This document shows, one piece after another, positions 13,182 through 24,284 of a DNA stretch of 37,867 nt. Source of the DNA: an uncultured beta proteobacterium (lineage in GTDB: Bacteria; Pseudomonadota; Gammaproteobacteria; Burkholderiales; Burkholderiaceae_C). Below the pieces are notes generated by a model that worked only from the letters and a program-made list of their open reading frames with translations, did no database searches and was not told the DNA's origin. The position numbers were made by a program, and so were the translations under genes. The stretch covers positions 1 through 37,867 of the forward strand of contig CAIYDK010000509.1 in NCBI GenBank assembly GCA_903924955.1, read 5' to 3'. Position 1 is the stretch's first letter. Every line of letters begins with the position of its first letter.

Positions 13182-16037
13182 CTACGAATTCAAAGTGGCA
13201 TCTCGCTGGCTTGCCGGAATTGACACCCGTACCATGTTCTTGACTTCGGGCAGGCAGGAGCCGCAGTTGGTGCCGCACTGAAGCGCAGCCTGTAATTGCA
13301 CCAGGCGCTGATCCTCATTGCCTTTGCAGTTGACCAGTTGTGTGGCGATGGCGCTCTCGGTCACGTTGAAGCAGGTGCAAATCTGTTTGCCGCGCGATTG
13401 CACGGCCGCCGGGGGCTTGGCACTTGGCGCGAGCAGCATGCGGCCAAAGGCCTGAGCGGGGAGTTCGTCCTGCAGCAGGGTTTTGATCCAGCTCTGGGCG
13501 CTGGTGTCGCCGGCCAGCACAAAGGCGTTGAGGCGACGTTCACCCGCCGCGTCGGCTGGCAACAACTGTATGGCGCGGCGTTGGCCGCGCTTTTTGTCGG
13601 CATAGCGCAGCACATCAATGCCGCCCAGACCCAGCACACGTTCAATGGTGGCAAGGACGTTGTCGGGTGGCGCTTCATAGGCGGCAGCGCGAAACAGGAG
13701 GCCACTGCGCTCGCGGCCAAATGGCGTGCAACTGGCAAACGAAAATAGCGCCATCAGTTCCTTGAGCTTGGCGCGCGCCTGCAGGGCCGCCTCGTCGGGC
13801 AACCAGGCCACGGCCAACAGCGACCAGGGCAGCTCGGCCTTGAGCACCTTGATGGCGGCGTGTTTGAACTCGGGCTGCTTGGAGGTGGGGCAAAAGGCCG
13901 GGCTGGTTAGCGCATTCACCCCCGACAGGCGCTCGCCAATGCTGCTGGAGCCACTTAGAAACTCTTCGCCCCAGTGCATGGCCATGAAGGTTTGTTGTGG
14001 AGCCATTGTGGCGCTGCCCAGTACGGGTACAACGATGGAGCCTCGTTTGCTGGTGACGTGCACGAGGTCGCCATCCAGCAGGCCCTGGCGGGTCATGTCC
14101 TGACGGTTCATCTCGATGGATGGCTCGCCCACATGGCCGAAAAGTCGACCCAGTGTGCCGGTACGGCTCATGCCGTGCCACTGGTCGCGCAGTCGCCCGG
14201 TGTTGAGTGAGAACGGGTAGCGCGTCTCACGCGGCTCGGCCACTGGCTTGTAGACCGTATCGGCAAATTTTGCCCTGCCATCTGCGGAGGGAAAAATGCC
14301 GTCTGCATAGAGCCGCTGCAATCCCGCTGTCTGTCCTTCGGCAAGCGGCCATTGCTGTGGGGCTTGGTCGAGCATGGCGTAGGACATGCCGGTGATGTCG
14401 AGGTCACGGCCCCGCGTGGATTCGCGGTGCTCGTTCCAGATGGACTCGGGGCTGGTGTAGGGGAATATCGGTTTACCGTGGCCCATTCCAATAGCCTCAA
14501 GGCAGCGTGCGAAGTCGATGGCTATTTTCCAGTCGTGACGCGGTCCATTTTCACGCTGCCCGGGGGGTGCGACCGCGGCCCGCACCCGAGAAATCCGGCG
14601 CTCGCTATTGGTAACGGTGCCTTCTTTTTCGCCCCAGGTGGTGGCAGGCAGCAGCAGGTCGGCGTAACGGCAGGTGGCGGTGTTGTTAAAGGCTTCCTGC
14701 ACCACCACGAACTCGGCGCGCTCCAGCGCACGGCGCACGGTGGCCTGGTCGGGCATGCTTTGGGCCGGATTGGTGCATGCAATCCACAGGGCTTTGATCT
14801 CGCCGTCGGCGGCAGCCTGGAACATCTCTATGGCGGTCTTGCCGGGTTTTTCTGGCACCGAAGGGACACCCCACAGTGCGGCAACTTCAGCGCGATGCTT
14901 TGGGTTGCCCAGGTCACGATGCGCGGACAACAGATTGGCCAGTCCACCCACTTCGCGCCCGCCCATCGCATTGGGCTGGCCGGTCAGGGAAAACGGGCCG
15001 GCCCCGGGCTTTCCGATCTGGCCGGTAGCCAGGTGCAGGTTGATGAGGGCTGCGTTCTTGGCCGTGCCACTGCTGGACTGGTTGAGGCCCTGGCAGTACA
15101 GGCTGAGCGTGGGTGTGCGCGCCGAGCCATTCAGGTGCTGCATACCGGCAAACAGGCGGGTCGCCTTGAGTAGGGCATCCTTGGTGATTCCGCAGGCCTG
15201 TGCCACCACAAATGGGTTGTAGTCGAGCACCGTGTTTTTGAGCGCTTTAAAGTCGTTCGTGTGGTTGGCGATAAAGGCCTCATCCAGCCAGCCTTCCCAG
15301 GCCATGATGTGCAGCATGCCGTTGAAGAGCATCACGTCGGTGCCTGGCTGAATGGCCAGATGCACATCGGCGATGCCGGCCGTGTCGGTGGTGCGCGGGT
15401 CAACCACCACCACGCGCAGGTTGGGGTTGGACTTTTTTGCATCTTCGATCCGGCGAAACAAAATGGGGTGCGCAAACGCGGTGTTGGAGCCTGCGATGAA
15501 GATGCACTGCGCGTGGTTGATATCGTCATAGCAGGCCGGTGGCGCGTCGGCACCCAGAGTCTGTTTGTAGCCGGCCACGGCGCTGCTCATGCACAGGCGC
15601 GAATTCGTGTCGATGTTGTTGGTGCCAATCAGACCCTTGGCCAGCTTGTTGAAGGCGTAATAGTCTTCCGTGAGCAGCTGGCCGGAAACATAAAACCCCA
15701 CAGCGTCGGGGCCCTGGCTGCGGATGATGCGCGCAAAATTATCTGTAGCAACAGCAAGCGCGGCATCCCAAGACACCGGCTGGGGCGCCTCGCCCCGATG
15801 CAAACGTTGCAAGGGTTGCAGTAGGCGGGTTTGCTGCGTGACCGCTGTGCTGGCGGTCAGGTGCAGGGTGGCACCCTTGGTACACAGGCGGCCAAAATTG
15901 GCCGGGTGATCGGGGTCCCCTCGCACCCCGGTGATCTGGCCGCCCTCGGACTCTATGATGACGCCACAGCCCACACCGCAGTAGGGGCAGGTTGATGGGG
16001 TCTGGCGAAGTGCGGTCATGGATGGGCTTGCGTGCAA
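13182..16037 (-). CDS. nasA: assimilatory nitrate reductase catalytic subunit, C-terminal BFD-like [2Fe-2S] domain
   Basis: CPYCGVGCGVIIE Fe-S motif; molybdopterin oxidoreductase motifs (GFYVSGQLLTEDYYAFNKLAKG, NSRLCMSSAVAGYK); C-terminal ICTCFNVTESAI...CGTNCGSCLPEVK. Confidence 0.95.
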   Translation of the reverse strand: MHASPSMTALRQTPSTCPYCGVGCGVIIESEGGQITGVRGDPDHPANFGRLCTKGATLHLTASTAVTQQTRLLQPLQRLHRGEAPQPVSWDAALAVATDNFARIIRSQGPDAVGFYVSGQLLTEDYYAFNKLAKGLIGTNNIDTNSRLCMSSAVAGYKQTLGADAPPACYDDINHAQCIFIAGSNTAFAHPILFRRIEDAKKSNPNLRVVVVDPRTTDTAGIADVHLAIQPGTDVMLFNGMLHIMAWEGWLDEAFIANHTNDFKALKNTVLDYNPFVVAQACGITKDALLKATRLFAGMQHLNGSARTPTLSLYCQGLNQSSSGTAKNAALINLHLATGQIGKPGAGPFSLTGQPNAMGGREVGGLANLLSAHRDLGNPKHRAEVAALWGVPSVPEKPGKTAIEMFQAAADGEIKALWIACTNPAQSMPDQATVRRALERAEFVVVQEAFNNTATCRYADLLLPATTWGEKEGTVTNSERRISRVRAAVAPPGQRENGPRHDWKIAIDFARCLEAIGMGHGKPIFPYTSPESIWNEHRESTRGRDLDITGMSYAMLDQAPQQWPLAEGQTAGLQRLYADGIFPSADGRAKFADTVYKPVAEPRETRYPFSLNTGRLRDQWHGMSRTGTLGRLFGHVGEPSIEMNRQDMTRQGLLDGDLVHVTSKRGSIVVPVLGSATMAPQQTFMAMHWGEEFLSGSSSIGERLSGVNALTSPAFCPTSKQPEFKHAAIKVLKAELPWSLLAVAWLPDEAALQARAKLKELMALFSFASCTPFGRERSGLLFRAAAYEAPPDNVLATIERVLGLGGIDVLRYADKKRGQRRAIQLLPADAAGERRLNAFVLAGDTSAQSWIKTLLQDELPAQAFGRMLLAPSAKPPAAVQSRGKQICTCFNVTESAIATQLVNCKGNEDQRLVQLQAALQCGTNCGSCLPEVKNMVRVSIPASQRDATLNS

Positions 16038-16066: not shown

Positions 16067-16450
16067 TCAGGAAGCGGCGCAGCCGGACTTGGGTCCGGCA
16101 ACGGGGCGGGTCTGGTCAATGGCGTGGCTGGCCAGTTCTACGGTTTTGAGTGACACCTGAGCGCCTTCTACCTTGACTGCAAACTTGGGCGTGCAGCCTG
16201 CGTCGGGCGCTGCCGCCTGGCCGGTGCACAGGCCAATCGTCCAGTTGTGCAGTGGGCAGGCCACGCTGGTTCCAAACACAATGCCTTGTGACAGCGGTCC
16301 GCCCTTGTGCGGGCAGTGGTCCAGCAGAGCGAAGACTTCGTTGGCGTCGTTGCGGAACACGGCCACGTCCAAGCCTTGGGTACGGGCGACGCGGCGCGAG
16401 CCCAGTACGGGGATGTCTTCAACGTGGCAAATCGGGGTCCATTCACTCAT
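16067..16450 (-). CDS. nirD: nitrite reductase (NADH) small subunit, Rieske-type
   Basis: ICHVEDIPVLGSRRVARTQGLDVAVFRNDANEVFALLDHCPHKGGPLSQGIVFGTSVACPLHNW, with CxH...CxxH ligands. Confidence 0.93.
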   Translation of the reverse strand: MSEWTPICHVEDIPVLGSRRVARTQGLDVAVFRNDANEVFALLDHCPHKGGPLSQGIVFGTSVACPLHNWTIGLCTGQAAAPDAGCTPKFAVKVEGAQVSLKTVELASHAIDQTRPVAGPKSGCAAS

Positions 16451-16513: not shown

Positions 16514-17314
16514 TTATGTTCGTTGGTTGGCGTACATTCCGGTTACGCGATCCATGACGATCAGCAGGTTCTCGCTGGCCTGGAAAACGTCGATCAGCGC
16601 TTTGGGCGTGCTCGACTCGGTAAGGGTTACCTTTTTCAATGCCGACTCAAAGAACAGCCACTGGCCGTCGGCGACTTTGAGGTCGTCTTCAATTTTTTGT
16701 GTGGTCTCGGGTGCCTTGTGCAGAAGGACCATGGCACCACTGAACTCGCTGCGTGCTTTCTCGATTTCGGCGCTGGCCGTTGCTGCATCAACCGGGAGCC
16801 TTGCCGCCATGAAATACATGGCCATGCGTTGACTCAGCATGCGTTGGCGCCCGGCAATATTGACCAGTTTTCCCAAGGGCTTGGCTTGCACCATCTCATA
16901 TTGCACCGTGCCTTGATGGGCCAGTGTCAGCACACCGGCGTTGAGCTGCAACATATTTGCAGCATTCTCGCGGGAGGGCGCGCTGCCTACCAATGCGGCT
17001 TTGTAGCCGTTCCAGGACGTTTCCAGTTTGGAGTAGGTGTCCTTGATGTCGGCCGATGAGGCATAGGATTTGAGCTCGACCAACTGGCGGTCAAACAGGG
17101 CCATTGATTTGTCCAGGGCGGCCTGTGCGGTGGATTTTTCGATGCCATGCACTAGCGCCAGCCAGGCCTTGCCCATGCGCTGGCTCAGCATACGCTGGCG
17201 CCCCGCCTTGTTGATGGCGTCGCCCAGGTCGGTGACCTGGGCATGCACGCTCAGCAGGGGCAGGCCGACGGCGGCAATCATCAATGTTCTACGGCTTAGC
17301 AGGCTTGGTTTCAT
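16514..17314 (-). CDS. exported PilJ-N/NarX P-box-like protein with two P-box motifs and no output domain
   Basis: Twin-arginine-like leader MKPSLLSRRTLMIAAVGLPLLSVHA; INKAGRQRMLSQRM and VNIAGRQRMLSQRM. The rest is helical, with no further TM or signalling domain recognised. Confidence 0.85.
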   Translation of the reverse strand: MKPSLLSRRTLMIAAVGLPLLSVHAQVTDLGDAINKAGRQRMLSQRMGKAWLALVHGIEKSTAQAALDKSMALFDRQLVELKSYASSADIKDTYSKLETSWNGYKAALVGSAPSRENAANMLQLNAGVLTLAHQGTVQYEMVQAKPLGKLVNIAGRQRMLSQRMAMYFMAARLPVDAATASAEIEKARSEFSGAMVLLHKAPETTQKIEDDLKVADGQWLFFESALKKVTLTESSTPKALIDVFQASENLLIVMDRVTGMYANQRT

Positions 17315-17429: not shown

Positions 17430-19895
17430 TCAAGCGCCCAGTGCTTCGAACTGCCGGGTGTCCACTGCGGCTTCCTTGAAGTCAAACCACGGGTCAGGCT
17501 CTCCCTCGAGTGCCTGCTGCAATTGCACCCACAGTGTCTTGCGGCCTTTATGGTCATCCAGGATGCGCTTTTTGACGTAATCCAGGCCGACGCGGGCAAC
17601 AAAATGCACCGTGCGCTCCAGGTACCAGCCTTCCTGGCGGTAGAGCTGGCAGAAGGCACCGGTGTACTCCAGCACCTCAGCCGCCGTCTTGACCTTGACC
17701 AGGAAGTGGGCGACTTCGGTCTTGATGCCGCCGTTGCCGGCCACATACATTTCCCAGCCACTGTCCACACCGATGATGCCCACGTCCTTGATGCCGGCCT
17801 CGGCGCAGTTGCGCGGGCAGCCCGACACGGCGAACTTGACCTTGTGGGGTGCATACATTCCCACAAAAGCACGCTCCAGGTCCTTGCCCATCTGCGTGCT
17901 GTCCTGCGTACCCATGCGGCACCACTCACTGCCTACGCAGGTTTTCACCGTGCGCAGCGCCTTGGCGTAGGCGTGTCCGCTGGGCATGCCGATGTCCTTC
18001 CAGACGTTGACCAGGTCTTCCTTCTTCACACCCAGCAGGTCGATACGCTGGCCTCCGGTGACCTTGACGGTAGGAATTTTGTACTTGTCCACAGCGTCAG
18101 CAATGCGGCGCAATTCACTGGCCGTGGTTTCGCCGCCCCACATACGGGGAATGACGCTGTAGGTGCCGTCCTTCTGGATGTTGGCGTGACTGCGCTCGTT
18201 GATGAAGCGGCTTTGCGGGTCATCTTTTGCCTCTTTGGGCCAGGTGCTGATCAGGTAGTAGTTAACGGCAGGGCGGCACGATGCACATCCGTTGGGTGTC
18301 CTCCACTCCATGAACTGAAACACGCTGGCAATGGTCAGCAACGTGTTGGTGCGGATCGCGTCGCGCACGGCCTGGTGGCCATGGTCGGTGCAACTGCACA
18401 GGGCCTTGAGCTTGGGCGTGGCCGAGTAGTCGCCGCCGGCAGTGAACATCAGCAACTGCTCCACCAGGCCGGTGCAGGAGCCGCACGACGCGCTGGCCTT
18501 GGTGTGCTTGCGTACCTCGTCCAGCGTGAACAGCCCCTTTTCCTTGATGGCCTTGCAGATGGCGCCCTTGGTCACGCCATTGCAGCCGCACACCTCGGCG
18601 CTGTCAGGCATGGATGCGGCCTTGCAATGGCCTTCGTGGCCCACATCACCGATGTTGGACTCGCCGAACATCAGCTTGTCGCGGATGTCGCTTACGCTGC
18701 GCCCATCGCGTAACAGCTTGAAGTACCAGCTGCCGTCCACTGTGTCGCCATACAGACAGGCGCCGACCAGCTTGTCGTCCTTGATGACCAGCTTTTTGTA
18801 GACACCGCCATAGGGGTCGCTCATGATCAGTTCTTCGGTGCCTTCGCCCCCCGTGAAATCGCCCGCGCTGAACAGGTCAATACCGGTGACCTTGAGCTTG
18901 GTCGACGTGAGGGAACCTTTGTACTGGCCAATGCCGAACTGTGCCAGGTGGTTGGCTGCGACCTTAGCCTGTTCAAACAGCGGCGCGACCAGACCGTAGG
19001 CAATGCCACGGTGGGCCGCACATTCTCCAACCGAGTAAATGCGCGCATCGGTGGTGGTCTGCATGGTGTCGTTGACCACAATACCCTTGTTGCAGTGCAG
19101 GCGCATGCTTTCCGCCAACTGGGTATTGGGGCGAATGCCCACCGCCATCACCACCAGGTCGGCGGCAACGCAAGTGCCGTCCTTGAATTGGATGGATTGG
19201 ACGCGGCCACCTTTGCCATCGCAGGCGTTGCCGACCAGCGCTTGCGTTTGCGCGCCCATCAAAAACTTCAGGCCGCGGTCTTCGAGCGACTTTTGCAGCA
19301 TCTTGCCAGCCACGGTGTCCAACTGGCGTTCCATCAGCGTGGGCATCACGTGCACGACGGTCACGTTCATGCCACGCAGCATCAGGCCATTGGCCGCTTC
19401 GAGGCCCAGCAGGCCACCACCGATGACGACGGCGTTCCTGTACCGCTTCGACGCGTCAATCATGGCCTCGGTGTCTGCAATGTCGCGGTAGGCAATGACG
19501 CCTTCGAGCTCTTTGCCGGGAACGGGCAGGATAAAGGGGTTGGAGCCGGTGCACAGTAGCAGGCGGTCGTACGCGGACTCGGTGCCGTCGTTGGCGCGCA
19601 CGATGCGCTTGATGCGGTCGACTTCGACTACTTTTTTTCCGGCGTGCAGGGTGATGTGGTTGTCTTTGTACCAGTCCCAGGAGTTGAGCACGATCTCGTC
19701 AAGGGTCTGTTCGCCGGCCAGCACCGGCGAGAGCAAAATACGGTTGTAGTTGGGGTGTGGCTCAGCGCCAAATACGGTGACGTCGTAGAGTTCGGGGGCA
19801 ATCTTCAGTAGCTCTTCTAGAGTGCGCACACCCGCCATGCCATTGCCGACCATGACGAGCTTCTGTTTTGTTTTGACTTGCATGTCCATGGTCAT
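17430..19895 (-). CDS. nirB: nitrite reductase (NADH) large subunit
   Basis: VGNGMAGVRTLEELL FAD motif; CGCNGVTKGAI, CGSCTGLVEQLL BFD-type domain; siroheme/4Fe-4S CVGSEWCRMGTQDS...SGCPRNCAEAGIKDVG. Confidence 0.96.
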   Translation of the reverse strand: MTMDMQVKTKQKLVMVGNGMAGVRTLEELLKIAPELYDVTVFGAEPHPNYNRILLSPVLAGEQTLDEIVLNSWDWYKDNHITLHAGKKVVEVDRIKRIVRANDGTESAYDRLLLCTGSNPFILPVPGKELEGVIAYRDIADTEAMIDASKRYRNAVVIGGGLLGLEAANGLMLRGMNVTVVHVMPTLMERQLDTVAGKMLQKSLEDRGLKFLMGAQTQALVGNACDGKGGRVQSIQFKDGTCVAADLVVMAVGIRPNTQLAESMRLHCNKGIVVNDTMQTTTDARIYSVGECAAHRGIAYGLVAPLFEQAKVAANHLAQFGIGQYKGSLTSTKLKVTGIDLFSAGDFTGGEGTEELIMSDPYGGVYKKLVIKDDKLVGACLYGDTVDGSWYFKLLRDGRSVSDIRDKLMFGESNIGDVGHEGHCKAASMPDSAEVCGCNGVTKGAICKAIKEKGLFTLDEVRKHTKASASCGSCTGLVEQLLMFTAGGDYSATPKLKALCSCTDHGHQAVRDAIRTNTLLTIASVFQFMEWRTPNGCASCRPAVNYYLISTWPKEAKDDPQSRFINERSHANIQKDGTYSVIPRMWGGETTASELRRIADAVDKYKIPTVKVTGGQRIDLLGVKKEDLVNVWKDIGMPSGHAYAKALRTVKTCVGSEWCRMGTQDSTQMGKDLERAFVGMYAPHKVKFAVSGCPRNCAEAGIKDVGIIGVDSGWEMYVAGNGGIKTEVAHFLVKVKTAAEVLEYTGAFCQLYRQEGWYLERTVHFVARVGLDYVKKRILDDHKGRKTLWVQLQQALEGEPDPWFDFKEAAVDTRQFEALGA

Positions 19896-20719
19896 GCCGC
19901 CTTTTCTACGTGGGCTTGCCGTGTGTACAGAAAGTCGATCACGGCCTTGCGGTAACCCAGGTATTGCGCACTGTCAGCCAGCGCTACGCGGTTGCGGGGA
20001 CGGGCTAGATCCACATGCAGCACTTCGCCAATGGTTGCAGCAGGTCCGTTGGTCAGCATCACGATCTTGTCGGACAGCAGCACGGCCTCATCTACGTCGT
20101 GCGTCACCATCACCACGGTGCTGTGGGTGCGCGCCACGATGTCAAGCAACTCGTCTTGCAACTTGGCGCGTGTCAATGCGTCCAGCGCACCAAAGGGTTC
20201 ATCCATCAGCAGGACCTTGGGTTCCATGGCGAGGGCCCGAGCAATGCCCACGCGTTGCTTCATGCCTCCGGAGATTTCGCCAGGGCGCTTTTGGGCAGCC
20301 GGCGTCAGGCCCACCAAGGCCAGCGCGGCATCGGTGCGCGCCATGAGTTGCGCTTTGTTCTCAGATGGTGCGCCGGTGCTCCTGGATGCTGCACCAAAGA
20401 CGCGCTCCACACCCAGGTAAACGTTCTCAAAGCAGCTCAGCCAGGGCAGCAGGGAATGGTTCTGGAAAACCACTGCGCGTTCTGGGCCCGGGCCTGCGAT
20501 CTCGCGGTTGGCGCAGAGCAGGGTGCCTGCGGTGGGCAGGGTCAGTCCGGCAATCAGGTTCAACAAGGTTGATTTGCCGCAACCGGAGTGGCCGATCAGG
20601 GTCACGAATTCGCCCTTTGCCACGGTCAGGTTGACTTCGCGCAACGCGGGGAAAAAGCCTTTGCGGGTTCTGAAGGTTTGTTCAACGTTCTGGATATCGA
20701 TGTATTTCAAGTTGGTCAT
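19892..20719 (-). CDS. nitrate ABC transporter ATP-binding protein
   Basis: Walker A GHSGCGKSTLLN; signature region 'GEISGGMKQRVGIARALAMEPKVLLMDEPFGALD'. 4-bp overlap with nirB. Confidence 0.93.
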   Translation of the reverse strand: MTNLKYIDIQNVEQTFRTRKGFFPALREVNLTVAKGEFVTLIGHSGCGKSTLLNLIAGLTLPTAGTLLCANREIAGPGPERAVVFQNHSLLPWLSCFENVYLGVERVFGAASRSTGAPSENKAQLMARTDAALALVGLTPAAQKRPGEISGGMKQRVGIARALAMEPKVLLMDEPFGALDALTRAKLQDELLDIVARTHSTVVMVTHDVDEAVLLSDKIVMLTNGPAATIGEVLHVDLARPRNRVALADSAQYLGYRKAVIDFLYTRQAHVEKAA

Positions 20720-21666
20720 GACTTCACCTCTTCAAACGTAAATGCGGTGGCGATTTTGATCAGGGCGTATTCCAGTACCAGGCCCACAATGCCAATCACG
20801 AAGATGGCAATGATGATGTTCTTGACGTTGAGGTTGTTCCACTCGTCCCACACCCAAAAGCCGATGCCCACGCCGCCCGTTAGCATCTCGGCGGCCACGA
20901 TCACCAGCCAGGCGGTGCCCACGGCCAGGCGCACGCCGGTCAACATATAGGGCAGCACGGCGGGGAACAGGATTTTGGTGACGATCTTCCACTCGGAAAG
21001 GTTCAGCACACGCGCCACATTCATGTAGTCCTGGGGTACACGCTGCACACCGACCGCGGTATTGATGACCATGGGCCAGATGGAGCAGATGAAGATGGTC
21101 CAGATGGCCGCCGGGTTGGCTCCCTTGAATACCATCAGACCAATCGGTAGCCAGGCCAGTGGGGACACCGGACGCAGCAGGCTGATCAGCGGGTTGAACA
21201 TGCGGCCGAGAAATTCGAAGCGGCCAATTGCAAAACCAGCCGGTATGCCCACGGCTGCCGCCAGGCCAAAGCCTATTGCCACGCGCTCCAATGACATCAG
21301 CACATTCCAGCCCACGCCCTGGTCGTTGGGCCCCTTGCGGTAGAACGGATCGCTGAACAGCACCACGGCCTGCTTCCAGGTTTCCCATGGGCTGGGAATG
21401 TTGCTGGCCGTGCTGATGCTGACTACGGCCCAGATGCCGATGAGCAGGCACAGGCCCAACAAGGGCGGCAACACTGCCATCACCAGGCCGCGCCAGTCGC
21501 GCGGGGAGCGTACCGCAGTCGATGCGGAGGTCATCACCGTCTGGGTCGAGGAATCCAAGGCTTTTAGGCCGATAGCCCCCGTGGAATGTGCGTGGGCAGC
21601 TTCTTTTTTCATAGCAATTCTATCGGTCGCCGCGGCCAAGGGGGAGTGGAAAACTGCGCTTACCAT
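20716..21666 (-). CDS. ntrB: nitrate ABC transporter permease
   Basis: MVSAVFHSPLAAATDRIAMKK...; permease motif 'AVGIPAGFAIGRFEFLGRMFNPLISLLRPVSPLAWLPIGLMVF'. ATG at 21666 with a GGAGCTC-type RBS upstream. 4-bp overlap with the ATPase gene. Confidence 0.93.
   Translation of the reverse strand: MVSAVFHSPLAAATDRIAMKKEAAHAHSTGAIGLKALDSSTQTVMTSASTAVRSPRDWRGLVMAVLPPLLGLCLLIGIWAVVSISTASNIPSPWETWKQAVVLFSDPFYRKGPNDQGVGWNVLMSLERVAIGFGLAAAVGIPAGFAIGRFEFLGRMFNPLISLLRPVSPLAWLPIGLMVFKGANPAAIWTIFICSIWPMVINTAVGVQRVPQDYMNVARVLNLSEWKIVTKILFPAVLPYMLTGVRLAVGTAWLVIVAAEMLTGGVGIGFWVWDEWNNLNVKNIIIAIFVIGIVGLVLEYALIKIATAFTFEEVKS
21567..21615 (-). repeat. copy E of the 49-bp dispersed repeat, inside ntrB
   Basis: Minus strand GCTATGAAAAAAGAAGCTGCCCACGCACATTCCACGGGGGCTATCGGCC, encoding IAMKKEAAHAHSTGAIGL. 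Confidence 0.65.
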
Positions 21667-21676
21667 GGTGAGCTCC

Positions 21677-22933
21677 TTAGGCTTTGATCTTGAAACCGTC
21701 GGCGTACTTCTTGGGATCTTTGCCGTCCCACACCACACCGTCCATGAACTTGGCCGAGCGCATCGCGTCCTTCGGAATCGGGGCCTTGGCAGCAGTGGCG
21801 GCCTGCTTGTAAATGTCGACCTGGTTGATCTGCTTGGCCACTGCCAGGTAGTCGGGGTGGTCTTTGAGCAAGCCCCAGCGCTTGTGCTGGGTCATGAACC
21901 ACATGCCGTCGGACAAATAGGGGAAGGTGACTGTGCCTTCGTTGAAAAACTTCATGTGGTTGGGGTCGTCCCAGGTTCTGCCCATGCCGTTCTGGTAGCG
22001 CCCCAGGATGCGCTGGTTGATCGCGTCGACGCTGGTGTTGACATAGCTCTTGTCGGCAATGGTTTCAGCCATTTTGTTTTTGTTGGACAGACTGGCGTCA
22101 ATCCACTGGCCGGCCTCAATGATGGCGGCTGTCACCGCGCGGGCCGTGTTGGGGTATTTTTTGACGAAATCGCCTGTGGTGCCCAGCACCTTTTCGGGGT
22201 GATCTTTCCAGATGTCTTGCGTAGTCGCGGCCGTCACGCCAATGCCGTCAATGATGGCTCTGTGGTTCCAGGGTTCGCCCACGCAGTAGCCATCCATGTT
22301 GCCCACACGCATGTTGGCCACCATTTGCGGAGGTGGTACCGTGATGACCTTGGCGTCCGTCATGGGGTTGATGCCGTTTGCCGCCAGCCAGTAGTACAGC
22401 CACATGGCATGGGTGCCGGTGGGGAAGGTTTGGGCGAAGGTGTAGTCCTGACCCGGCGGGCGCTTTTCGGCGGCCATCAATTTTGCAAGGCCGGCACCGT
22501 CCACCGCACCCTTGTCGGCGAGCTTTTTCGACAGGGTGATTGCCTGGCCATTCTGGTTCAGGGTCATCAGCACAGCCATGTCCTTTTTGGGGCCGCTGAT
22601 GCCGAGGTGCACACCGTAGATCAGGCCGTAGAGCGCGTGGGCAAAGTCCAGCTCGCCGTTGACCAGTTTGTCGCGCACGCCGGCCCAGGAGGCTTCCTTG
22701 CTGGGAATGATCTTGACCCCGTATTTCTTGTCAAAACCCAACACGCAGGCCATGACCACGCTGGCGCAGTCAGTCAAAGGGATGAATCCGATCTTGACCT
22801 CGGCCTTCTCCGGTGCGTCGGAGCCAGCGGCATAGACCGCTGCACGCAATGCTGGGTTGATGCCGATGGCGCCCACGGCAGCCGACTGAAGCACCGAGCG
22901 GCGGCTGAGCTTATTGTTTAAAAGGTTGGTCAT
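21677..22933 (-). CDS. nrtA: CmpA/NrtA family nitrate ABC substrate-binding protein, Tat signal
   Basis: MTNLLNNKLSRRSVLQSAAVGAIG (Tat-like leader); EKAEVKIGFIPLTDCASVVMA; VGNMDGYCVGEPWNHRAI. Confidence 0.92.
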   Translation of the reverse strand: MTNLLNNKLSRRSVLQSAAVGAIGINPALRAAVYAAGSDAPEKAEVKIGFIPLTDCASVVMACVLGFDKKYGVKIIPSKEASWAGVRDKLVNGELDFAHALYGLIYGVHLGISGPKKDMAVLMTLNQNGQAITLSKKLADKGAVDGAGLAKLMAAEKRPPGQDYTFAQTFPTGTHAMWLYYWLAANGINPMTDAKVITVPPPQMVANMRVGNMDGYCVGEPWNHRAIIDGIGVTAATTQDIWKDHPEKVLGTTGDFVKKYPNTARAVTAAIIEAGQWIDASLSNKNKMAETIADKSYVNTSVDAINQRILGRYQNGMGRTWDDPNHMKFFNEGTVTFPYLSDGMWFMTQHKRWGLLKDHPDYLAVAKQINQVDIYKQAATAAKAPIPKDAMRSAKFMDGVVWDGKDPKKYADGFKIKA

Positions 22934-22971: not shown

Positions 22972-23033
22972 AAAAGGCGTCCTCACGCTGCGGGGACTTG
23001 TCGGGCAAGTCGTGTACAGGTGGGGACGCCTTT
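22972..23033 (-). terminator. intrinsic terminator-like hairpin (attenuator) in the nrtA leader
   Basis: Minus strand AAGGCGTCC ... GGACGCCTT followed by TTC; an inner hairpin GACTTG-CCCGA-CAAGTC (22995-23011) sits in its loop. Lies about 40 nt upstream of the nrtA ATG. Confidence 0.75.
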
Positions 23034-23044
23034 GTCCGGGAGAG

Positions 23045-23074
23045 CTGGCTTCACCCGCCGTTGGGTGGTGCCAG
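23045..23074 (-). promoter_or_regulatory. ANTAR-target RNA hairpin P2
   Basis: Minus strand CTGGC-AC-CACCC-[AACGGC]-GGGTG-AA-GCCAG: hexaloop with A1 and G4. Confidence 0.78.
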
Positions 23075-23078
23075 TCGT

Positions 23079-23092
23079 GACCTTCATTGGTC
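23079..23092 (-). promoter_or_regulatory. ANTAR-target RNA hairpin P1
   Basis: Minus strand GACC-[AATGAA]-GGTC: hexaloop with A1 and G4, immediately 5' of P2. Confidence 0.75.
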
Positions 23093-23106
23093 TCGTTTGG
23101 ATATAC

Positions 23107-23121
23107 GCAATGAACGTGCCA
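23107..23121 (-). promoter_or_regulatory. sigma-54 (-24/-12) promoter of the nrtA operon
   Basis: Minus strand TGGCACGTTCATTGC, matching TGGCAC-N5-TTGC, with +1 predicted at about 23095. Confidence 0.75.
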
Positions 23122-23138: not shown

Positions 23139-23155
23139 CGCACCGGTTTTGTGCA
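23139..23155. promoter_or_regulatory. possible NtrC-binding site
   Basis: CGCACCGGTTTTGTGCA against TGCACC-N5-GGTGCA: 10 of 12 specified positions match. Confidence 0.4.
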
Positions 23156-23212: not shown

Positions 23213-23587
23213 ATGCAAACCGAATCGTCCAAAGCAAGAACCAACCGCTGTGTTCCGGTCGAGCAGTGGCCAGAATCACTGGAGCTGCTGCGCTATCTTG
23301 CCATCCAAAAAAATCCCTTGTCGGTTAGGGATTTGTCTCACGAAGTGAGCGCTCCGGAGATCTCCACACGCAATCGACTGGCTCGACTGGAGGCTGAAGG
23401 TGCGGTGAGTGCATCGCGTGCCACTTCTATCCTGGGTCCTGGCAAACAGGTGGTATGCGCGCATTACGTCATCACGCAGTACGGCAGGGATTGCGCGGGC
23501 CTGCGCTCGCAGGCCACGGAAAATGCACCACGTCCGTGCGTTAACAGCGTCTTCGCGTTGGCGAAGGCGATGAATCTCGGGTTCTGA
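23213..23587 (+). CDS. small winged-helix-like protein divergent from the nrtA operon
   Basis: ELLRYLAIQKNPLSVRDLSHEVSAPEISTRNRLARLEAEGAVSASR resembles a wHTH with recognition helix and wing. 124 aa. Confidence 0.6.
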   Translation: MQTESSKARTNRCVPVEQWPESLELLRYLAIQKNPLSVRDLSHEVSAPEISTRNRLARLEAEGAVSASRATSILGPGKQVVCAHYVITQYGRDCAGLRSQATENAPRPCVNSVFALAKAMNLGF

Positions 23588-23624: not shown

Positions 23625-24284
23625 TCAGCCTAATAGCTCGGCCACGTCCAGCATGCGCTGGGCGACATCAATTATTTTCAGGTTCTTGTCCATCGCGGTC
23701 TTGCGTAATTTCTCGTAGGCAACCGGCTCGCTCAGGCCCTGGCGCTGCATCAGCAGGCCCTTGGCACGTTCAATGATGCGGCGGTTTTTGAGTTCGGTAC
23801 TCAGGTCCAGCAGTTCGGTCTTCGCATCCGCCAACTCAGCCCGCAACGCCTGTTCGTGTTCAAAGCGTGCCATTGCAACATTCAAAATGGGGCGAATGCG
23901 ATGCGGTGACAGACCGGCCACGATGTAGGCCGACACCCCGGCCGCCACGGCGGCGCGCGCGTTGGAGGTGTCGTCATCGTTGGTGAACATGACAATGGGG
24001 CGTCGCGCATTGCGCGTGGCTACGACGACATGTTCGAGCGCATCGCGAGCGTCGCTTTCAGCGTCCAGAATGATCAGATCCGCCTGCAATTGTCCTAGGC
24101 GCTCCTGTAGGTAGGTGTCGGCCGGAAGTACTGCGACCAGGTTGAAGCCGCTTTCCAGCAAGGCGATGCGCAGACTGCGCGAACGCTCGGCCTGTTGCAG
24201 GGCGTGGGCATCGTCCTGGTCGGCAATGTCCAGATCGGGGGCTACAACAACAATTCGCAGGGCTTCAAGCATGGTGTTGAACAT
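23625..24284 (-). CDS. nasT: ANTAR-domain response regulator, NasT-like
   Basis: C-terminal ANTAR block ELKNRRIIERAKGLLMQRQGLSEPVAYEKLRKTAMDKNLKIIDVAQRMLDVAELL; N-terminal REC-like domain (ADLIILDAESD). Confidence 0.88.
   Translation of the reverse strand: MFNTMLEALRIVVVAPDLDIADQDDAHALQQAERSRSLRIALLESGFNLVAVLPADTYLQERLGQLQADLIILDAESDARDALEHVVVATRNARRPIVMFTNDDDTSNARAAVAAGVSAYIVAGLSPHRIRPILNVAMARFEHEQALRAELADAKTELLDLSTELKNRRIIERAKGLLMQRQGLSEPVAYEKLRKTAMDKNLKIIDVAQRMLDVAELLG

What the first reader, a model, noticed from the sequence alone, without database searches (positions are those of the whole stretch)
22972..23092. Tandem hexaloop ANTAR hairpins followed by an attenuator upstream of the nrtA-ntrB-nirB-nirD-nasA operon
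Seen directly on the minus strand: GACC-[AATGAA]-GGTC (P1), then CTGGC-AC-CACCC-[AACGGC]-GGGTG-AA-GCCAG (P2), then AAGGCGTCC...GGACGCCTT-TTC about 40 nt before the nrtA ATG. Both loops are 6 nt with A at position 1 and G at position 4. Established: this is the RNA motif recognised by ANTAR antiterminators (NasR, NasT, EutV), and an ANTAR protein is encoded about 0.7 kb away (23625-24284). Inference: the whole nitrate assimilation operon is controlled by ANTAR-mediated antitermination. An extra hairpin, GACTTG-CCCGA-CAAGTC, nests in the terminator loop and could stabilise or compete with it.
Basis: partly seen in the sequence, partly recalled or inferred. Interest (0 to 1): 0.8.

Follow-up and report, generated by a model that had tools for sequence, protein, structure and literature searches.

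The report
NasT-controlled RNA switch before nitrate operon

Summary
The hairpins are real (minus strand 23092-22972) and fold far better than chance (z -6.5). A sigma54 -24/-12 box and an NtrC-like site precede them. The ANTAR-antitermination idea is well supported, but the anatomy was misassigned. One column changes together with both its HP3 and its terminator partner, as a mutually exclusive switch should. Pseudomonas NalA (Rfam P11) and Ramesh's P1/P2 motif define this kind; here the leader gains a third, covarying hairpin.

The surprise is sensing. No NasS was found in the genome or in most NasT-bearing relatives; the only such protein beside nasT is Tat-exported NrtA. Where another transporter replaced NrtA's own, an NrtA ortholog persists beside nasT (4/4 NasT genomes; 0/6 without NasT at the locus), has lost its signal peptide in three and kept its nitrate-binding residues. 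NrtA doubling as NasS is a testable inference, not shown.

The parts
23139..23155 (-). NtrC-like site TGCACAAAACCGGTGCG (1 mismatch to TGCAC-N7-GTGCA)
   Evidence: sites with <=2 mismatches in 64 of 70 leaders, 13.1 expected from Markov shuffles; in this window it lies unusually close (34 nt) to the -24 box
23106..23121 (-). sigma54 -24/-12 promoter TGGCACG-TTCA-TTGCG; start of transcription predicted near 23095
   Evidence: sequence; TGGC[AC]C-N5-TTGC in the same place in about 70 of 80 loci
23079..23092 (-).
   Evidence: 97.8% of cells paired and all 4 pairs with two-sided changes; loop A1/G4 only 30/57; gapped or absent in 7
23045..23074 (-).
   Evidence: loop A1/G4 in 62/63; 9 of 10 pairs with two-sided changes
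23024..23037 (-).
   Evidence: loop A1/G4 59/64, G4 64/64; A1/G4 hexaloop overlapping a perfect terminator arm in 62 of 79 relatives against 4 of 1600 shuffled leaders
22972..23032 (-). intrinsic terminator: 5' arm AAGGCGTCC 23032-23024, distal hairpin GACTTG-CCCGA-CAAGTC, 3' arm GGACGCCTT 22982-22974, T-tract
   Evidence: 99.3% of cells paired; alignment column 135 pairs C-G 55 / U-A 8 / U-G 1 with the 3' arm and G-C 55 / A-U 9 with HP3; -31.7 kcal/mol
21677..22933 (-). nrtA, Tat-signal nitrate-binding protein, first gene after the attenuator; proposed NasS-equivalent
   Evidence: best PDB match 2g29 NrtA E=1.3e-78; SRRSVLQ Tat motif; W102/Q155/H196/K269 conserved
20716..21711 (-). nrtB, nitrate ABC permease (start approximate)
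   Evidence: TIGR01183 over its cut-off
19892..20719 (-). nrtD-type nitrate ABC ATPase
   Evidence: TIGR01184 over its cut-off
17430..19895 (-). nirB, nitrite reductase large subunit
16514..17314 (-). stand-alone twin-PilJ protein with a Tat-like signal, inside the operon
   Evidence: PF13675 91.1 bits, two stretches
16067..16450 (-). nirD, nitrite reductase small subunit
   Evidence: TIGR02378 over its cut-off
13182..16037 (-). nasA, assimilatory nitrate reductase
23625..24284 (-). nasT, REC-ANTAR antiterminator
   Evidence: PF03861 72.2 bits; 43% identical to Shinella NasT, which has a NasS next to it

Best explanation
A sigma54 (probably NtrC-dependent) promoter starts the nas operon under nitrogen limitation. 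The nascent leader folds HP1, HP2 and HP3. If nothing holds HP3, RNA polymerase runs on, the far more stable terminator takes HP3's 3' arm and loop, and transcription stops about 40 nt before nrtA. NasT, active when nitrate is present, binds the hexaloops of HP2 and HP3 as a dimer, keeps HP3 closed and lets transcription through. HP1 is an extra hairpin added in this bacterial group whose role is unknown. Shown here by sequence and covariation: the promoter box, three hairpins, the mutually exclusive HP3/terminator, the neighbouring ANTAR protein. Inferred from characterised relatives: NasT binding, antitermination, nitrate response, NtrC activation. Separate and less certain inference (about 0.4): because NasS is missing, NrtA itself, before export by the Tat pathway, holds NasT when nitrate is absent; as the first gene behind the switch it would also close a negative feedback loop.
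For: HP2/HP3 loops conserved at A1/G4 in 62/63 and 59/64. Stems covary. One column covaries with both alternative partners. Terminator-overlapping A1/G4 hairpin in 62/79 leaders against 4/1600 shuffles. A covariance model of HP2+HP3 finds one strong site in the own genome (E=1.8e-15, next 0.118) and sites in 58/121 family genomes, most between nasT and nrtA. Energetics: leader to the end of HP3 folds as HP1+HP2+HP3 (-28.9 kcal/mol); full leader prefers the terminator (-60.1 against -47.6 with HP3 forced). Same layout as Pseudomonas NalA, sigma54/NtrC plus NasT (review PMC12830290), and sub-threshold match to Rfam P11, E=9.7e-6. For the NrtA part: no NasS by two searches of the own genome; 26 of 41 NasT genomes have only the one NasS/NrtA-family hit (my count); NrtA kept beside nasT in 4/4 NasT genomes whose transporter was replaced, against 0/6 without NasT at the locus, signal lost in 3 of the 4, binding residues kept.
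Against: No experiment. The nine A-U changes in HP3 are all in one clade (Polaromonas-like), so few independent events. HP3's conservation is partly that of the terminator it overlaps. The CM and alignment were built from leaders selected for a sigma54 box and an HP3-like stem. The window's T-tract is short. For NrtA as sensor: it has an export signal; the four retained copies form one clade (98/97), so they may be a single event; Tat signals are usual in this protein family (my knowledge); the own genome is a 91.5%-complete draft.
Confidence: 0.87

Rival explanations
1. One reading: HP1 and HP2 are the NasT-binding pair; the terminator is a separate element downstream.
For: Both loops obey A1/G4 in this window; HP1's stem is clearly selected.
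Against: HP1 is absent in several Polaromonas and its loop breaks the rule in about half the relatives; neither HP1 nor HP2 overlaps the terminator, while HP3 does and obeys the rule.
Confidence: 0.08
2. NasT here needs no NasS-like partner: it is constitutively active, or gated by something else (phosphorylation, PII, c-di-GMP), and nitrate specificity is lost or comes from elsewhere. (Rival to the sensor part only, not to the attenuator.)
For: No NasS found. c-di-GMP is reported to inhibit P. putida NasT (PMC12830290). NtrC-like sites suggest strong general nitrogen control.
Against: NrtA is retained beside nasT even when its transporter is replaced, with nitrate-binding residues intact and signal peptide lost; nasS loss in Paracoccus makes nas expression constitutive (PMC3795266), which would be a costly default.
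Confidence: 0.35
3. The nitrate sensor for NasT is another protein of the operon, for example the stand-alone twin-PilJ protein (16514-17314). (Rival to the sensor part only.)
For: PilJ domains resemble the sensor domain of NarX/NarQ, and relatives carry NasT-PilJ fusions (L003:11432-12844).
Against: The window protein has a Tat-like export signal and no output domain; it was not tested for co-occurrence with NasT.
Confidence: 0.1
4. The leader is mainly a stable small RNA made by termination, as Rfam files P11, and not a regulated attenuator.
For: Rfam types the Pseudomonas homolog as a gene for an sRNA.
Against: Conserved position between sigma54 promoter and nrtA, loop rule, dual covariation, nasT next to it; NalA is described as the nirBD leader.
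Confidence: 0.04

Closest known systems
NalA / Rfam RF00625 P11, leader of Pseudomonas nirBD (NasT, sigma54, NtrC)
   Same: sigma54 box, HP2-like hairpin, GGACAAAGGCGUCC...GGACGCC antiterminator/terminator in the same order
   Different: Scores 32.2 bits, below Rfam's gathering score of 70; the P11 model shows no paired HP1; longer terminator arm here; regulates nrtA first instead of nirBD; NasS absent here
ANTAR dual-hairpin antiterminator (Ramesh et al. 2012, PMC3369931; EutV, NasR/nasF, AmiR)
   Same: Two hexaloop hairpins with A1/G4, the second overlapping the terminator
   Different: A third upstream hairpin, HP1, with a covarying stem but relaxed loop
NasS-NasT of Paracoccus, Azotobacter and Pseudomonas (PMC3795266)
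   Same: NasT REC-ANTAR protein, leader before the nas genes
   Different: No signal-less NasS; the only NrtA/NasS-family protein at the locus is Tat-exported NrtA, behind the attenuator
NasR (NIT-ANTAR), Klebsiella nasF
   Same: In Variovorax-type relatives a NIT-ANTAR protein sits where nasT sits, before the same kind of leader
   Different: The window's regulator has no NIT domain

Membership tests
ANTAR dual-hairpin antiterminator (Ramesh 2012) | Two tandem hairpins, stem >=3 bp, hexaloop with A1 and G4 | tested here: met
   HP2 62/63 and HP3 59/64 across relatives; both met in the window
ANTAR dual-hairpin antiterminator (Ramesh 2012) | Second hairpin overlaps an intrinsic terminator, mutually exclusive | tested here: met
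   column 135 covaries with both partners
ANTAR dual-hairpin antiterminator (Ramesh 2012) | Bound by an ANTAR protein, giving antitermination | not testable with these tools
   ANTAR gene 0.7 kb away; no experiment
Rfam RF00625 P11 (NalA) | Score at or above the gathering cut-off of 70 bits | tested here: not met
   32.2 bits, E=9.7e-6: same layout, not a member by the curators' threshold
NasS-NasT two-component system | NasT: receiver-like plus ANTAR domain | tested here: met
   ANTAR 72.2 bits; Response_reg 20.2 bits, under its cut-off of 30.2; 43% identity to a NasT that has NasS beside it
NasS-NasT two-component system | Cytosolic, signal-less NasS next to nasT | tested here: not met
   Only NrtA (31%) found in the own genome; same in 26 of 41 NasT genomes; draft 91.5% complete
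NasR | NIT domain fused to ANTAR | tested here: not met
   No NIT in the window protein
sigma54/NtrC-controlled nitrogen operon | -24/-12 box and NtrC sites | tested here: met
   sigma54 box conserved; NtrC-like sites 64/70 against 13.1 expected; binding itself not testable here

The most novel reading that the evidence does not exclude
In this group of Burkholderiales the exported nitrate-binding protein NrtA is also NasT's nitrate sensor: Tat substrates fold in the cytosol, so unexported NrtA could hold NasT when nitrate is absent. Transport and gene control would share one protein, itself made behind the switch it controls. In lineages with a replaced transporter, NrtA has become a dedicated signal-less sensor, that is, a second origin of a NasS.
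Probability: 0.4. Interest if true: 0.72.

Novelty: new variant of a known kind. Interest (0 to 1): 0.47.

Why it matters
The attenuator itself is a known kind and its mechanism can be taken over from Pseudomonas NalA and EutV, with the correct hairpin (HP3) now named for mutagenesis. What matters more is the missing sensor. NasT without NasS in many Burkholderiales poses a direct question of how nitrate reaches the RNA switch, and the retained, signal-less NrtA orthologs give a concrete, cheap test. If NrtA is the sensor, a transport protein would control its own operon through an RNA switch, and genome annotations of nrtA/nasS would need revision.

Tried and rejected
Rfam at gathering threshold: no match to the leader. 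Sigma70 promoter/terminator scan: no promoter, and the real terminator was missed because its loop is too long for the scan. PF13379 hits elsewhere in the genome (C21, C251, C296) considered as possible NasS: they look like other ABC-type binding proteins with their own N-terminal leaders, and none was found with a NasS query. Second ANTAR protein of the genome (C89): a response regulator next to a histidine-kinase gene, not NasT/NasR-like. 38-40% NasS-query hits in G003, G067, G079, G039, first taken as NasS: they are Tat-bearing type-2 NrtA proteins. Rhodoferax sediminis paper: 'ANTAR' was only 'antarcticus'. The covariation counts were not corrected for phylogeny.

Full report
WHAT IS THERE. 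Reading the minus strand: sigma54 box TGGCACGTTCATTGCG (23121-23106); HP1 GACC[AATGAA]GGTC (23092-23079); HP2 CTGGC-AC-CACCC[AACGGC]GGGTG-AA-GCCAG (23074-23045); HP3 GGAC[AAAGGC]GTCC (23037-23024); terminator arms AAGGCGTCC (23032-23024) and GGACGCCTT (22982-22974) with T-tract to 22972; nrtA ATG at 22933. The leader folds at -75.5 kcal/mol, z -6.49 against shuffles. The operon is nrtA, nrtB, nrtD, nirB, a twin-PilJ protein, nirD, nasA; nasT (23625-24284) lies upstream on the same strand.

THE MISSED HAIRPIN. A scan for 4-bp stems around hexaloops with A1 and G4 in the leaders of 80 NrtA homologs returned GGAC[AAAGGC]GTCC almost everywhere. Its loop (positions 2-6) plus 3' arm are exactly the terminator's 5' arm, so HP3 and the terminator cannot coexist. 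A terminator-overlapping A1/G4 hairpin occurs in 62 of 79 relatives and in 4 of 1600 Markov-shuffled leaders.

CONSERVATION AND COVARIATION. In an alignment of 64 leaders (A1; selected for a sigma54 box and an HP3-like stem, loop unconstrained) A1/G4 holds in 62/63 HP2 loops, 59/64 HP3 loops (G4 in all 64) and 30/57 HP1 loops; HP1 is gapped in 7 rows, mostly Polaromonas, where it is deleted. Stems: HP1 97.8% paired with two-sided changes in all four pairs; HP2 two-sided changes in nine of ten pairs; HP3 100% paired. Column 135 pairs G-C/A-U (55/9) with HP3's 5' arm and C-G/U-A/U-G (55/8/1) with the terminator's 3' arm: the change was made in three places together, as a switch requires. The nine changed sequences are one clade, so the number of events is small. 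HP1 is therefore a real structural element, but not part of the conserved ANTAR pair.

ENERGETICS. RNA up to the end of HP3 folds as HP1+HP2+HP3 (-28.9 kcal/mol); the full leader prefers the terminator (-60.1, against -47.6 with the three hairpins forced). This order (HP3 first, terminator later and stronger) is what an antiterminator needing protein help looks like.

PROMOTER. The sigma54 box recurs in about 70 of 80 loci at a fairly constant distance from HP3 (mostly 80-92 nt; about 65-70 where HP1 is lost). NtrC-like sites occur upstream in 64 of 70 leaders against 13.1 expected. In Acidovorax citrulli, another member of the Comamonadaceae, ntrC deletion lowers expression of the gene called nasS and abolishes growth on nitrate (PMC10052978).

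KNOWN RELATIVES. Rfam P11 matches the whole arrangement at E=9.7e-6 but 32.2 bits, under the gathering score of 70. That P11 and NalA are the same RNA is my reading of shared sequence and context; NalA is described as the NasT-dependent, sigma54/NtrC-driven nirBD leader (review PMC12830290). The dual-hairpin rule, with P2 overlapping the terminator, is from Ramesh et al. 2012 (PMC3369931). By these the window's leader is a further member of a known kind, with an added HP1.

REGULON. A covariance model of HP2+HP3 (R1) finds one strong site in the own genome (E=1.8e-15; next 0.118), and sites in 58 of 121 family genomes, most between nasT and nrtA.

THE MISSING SENSOR. In Paracoccus NasT is held by NasS, a cytosolic NrtA relative without signal sequence (PMC3795266). 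The own genome has only NrtA by NrtA and NasS queries. In 121 family genomes, 41 have a NasT at least 50% identical to the window's; in 26 of them (my count) the NasS query hits one protein only, the NrtA near nasT. The others have further NrtA-family hits that were not all inspected. All 80 NrtA loci bear a twin arginine at the N-terminus (77 match a strict Tat pattern).

NATURAL EXPERIMENT. Ten of 400 family genomes carry a different NrtA2 transporter. Four of these have nasT (G003, G067, G181, G317), and all four keep an ortholog of the window NrtA between nasT and nrtA2; in three it has no signal peptide. The six others (three with NasR, one with a NasT-PilJ fusion, two with no regulator seen in 8 kb) have none genome-wide above 40% identity. 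W102, Q155, H196 and K269 (nitrate ligands in 2g29, numbering from my memory and consistent with the alignment) are kept in all four. Caution: these four form one clade (98/97), so this may be one evolutionary event; a naive probability of 1/210 overstates the evidence. NasT was not searched genome-wide in G360 and G397.

READING. The attenuator works like NalA with high probability. That NrtA is the NasT partner is the simplest account of its retention, but is an inference at about 0.4. Regulator swaps at the same leader (NIT-ANTAR protein in L050, PF08376 at 1.1e-51, and similar short ANTAR matches in other Variovorax-type loci) show that the RNA switch is not tied to one way of sensing nitrate.

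Noticed in passing
L003:11432-12844 (-); L160:1042-2463 (+); L184:3160-4746 (+): REC-ANTAR protein fused to a twin PilJ domain near nas genes in relatives (domains checked in L003 only): a candidate one-component nitrate sensor/antiterminator. A paper search for PilJ, ANTAR and nitrate listed no title or abstract that describes it; the papers were not read through.
   Followed up: partly
window 16514-17314 (-): Stand-alone twin-PilJ protein with a Tat-like signal inside the nas operon, with two AGRQRMLSQRM motifs resembling NarX-type sensors and no output domain.
   Followed up: partly
window 23213-23587 (+): Small winged-helix (IclR-type HTH, just under cut-off) gene between nasT and the leader, divergent from nrtA; about 75% identical copies at the same place in L003 and L047; most other relatives have no room for it.
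   Followed up: partly
L050, L053, L054, L059, L062, L063, L065, L066, L068, L070, L073, L075: In place of NasT only an ANTAR-domain match; shown in L050 to be a NIT-ANTAR (NasR-like) protein, with the leader kept.
   Followed up: partly
L031, L038, L046: Shortened leaders with one upstream hairpin plus HP3 only (distance from sigma54 box to HP3 48-49 nt).
   Followed up: no
G037:C4:97123, G068:C11:976229, G009:C4:410451, G001:C34:313721: Matches to the HP2+HP3 model away from nrtA in some relatives: possible further NasT targets.
   Followed up: no
L098 (G098:C1:3277879-3278526): nasT with one in-frame TGA although the leader is intact.
   Followed up: no
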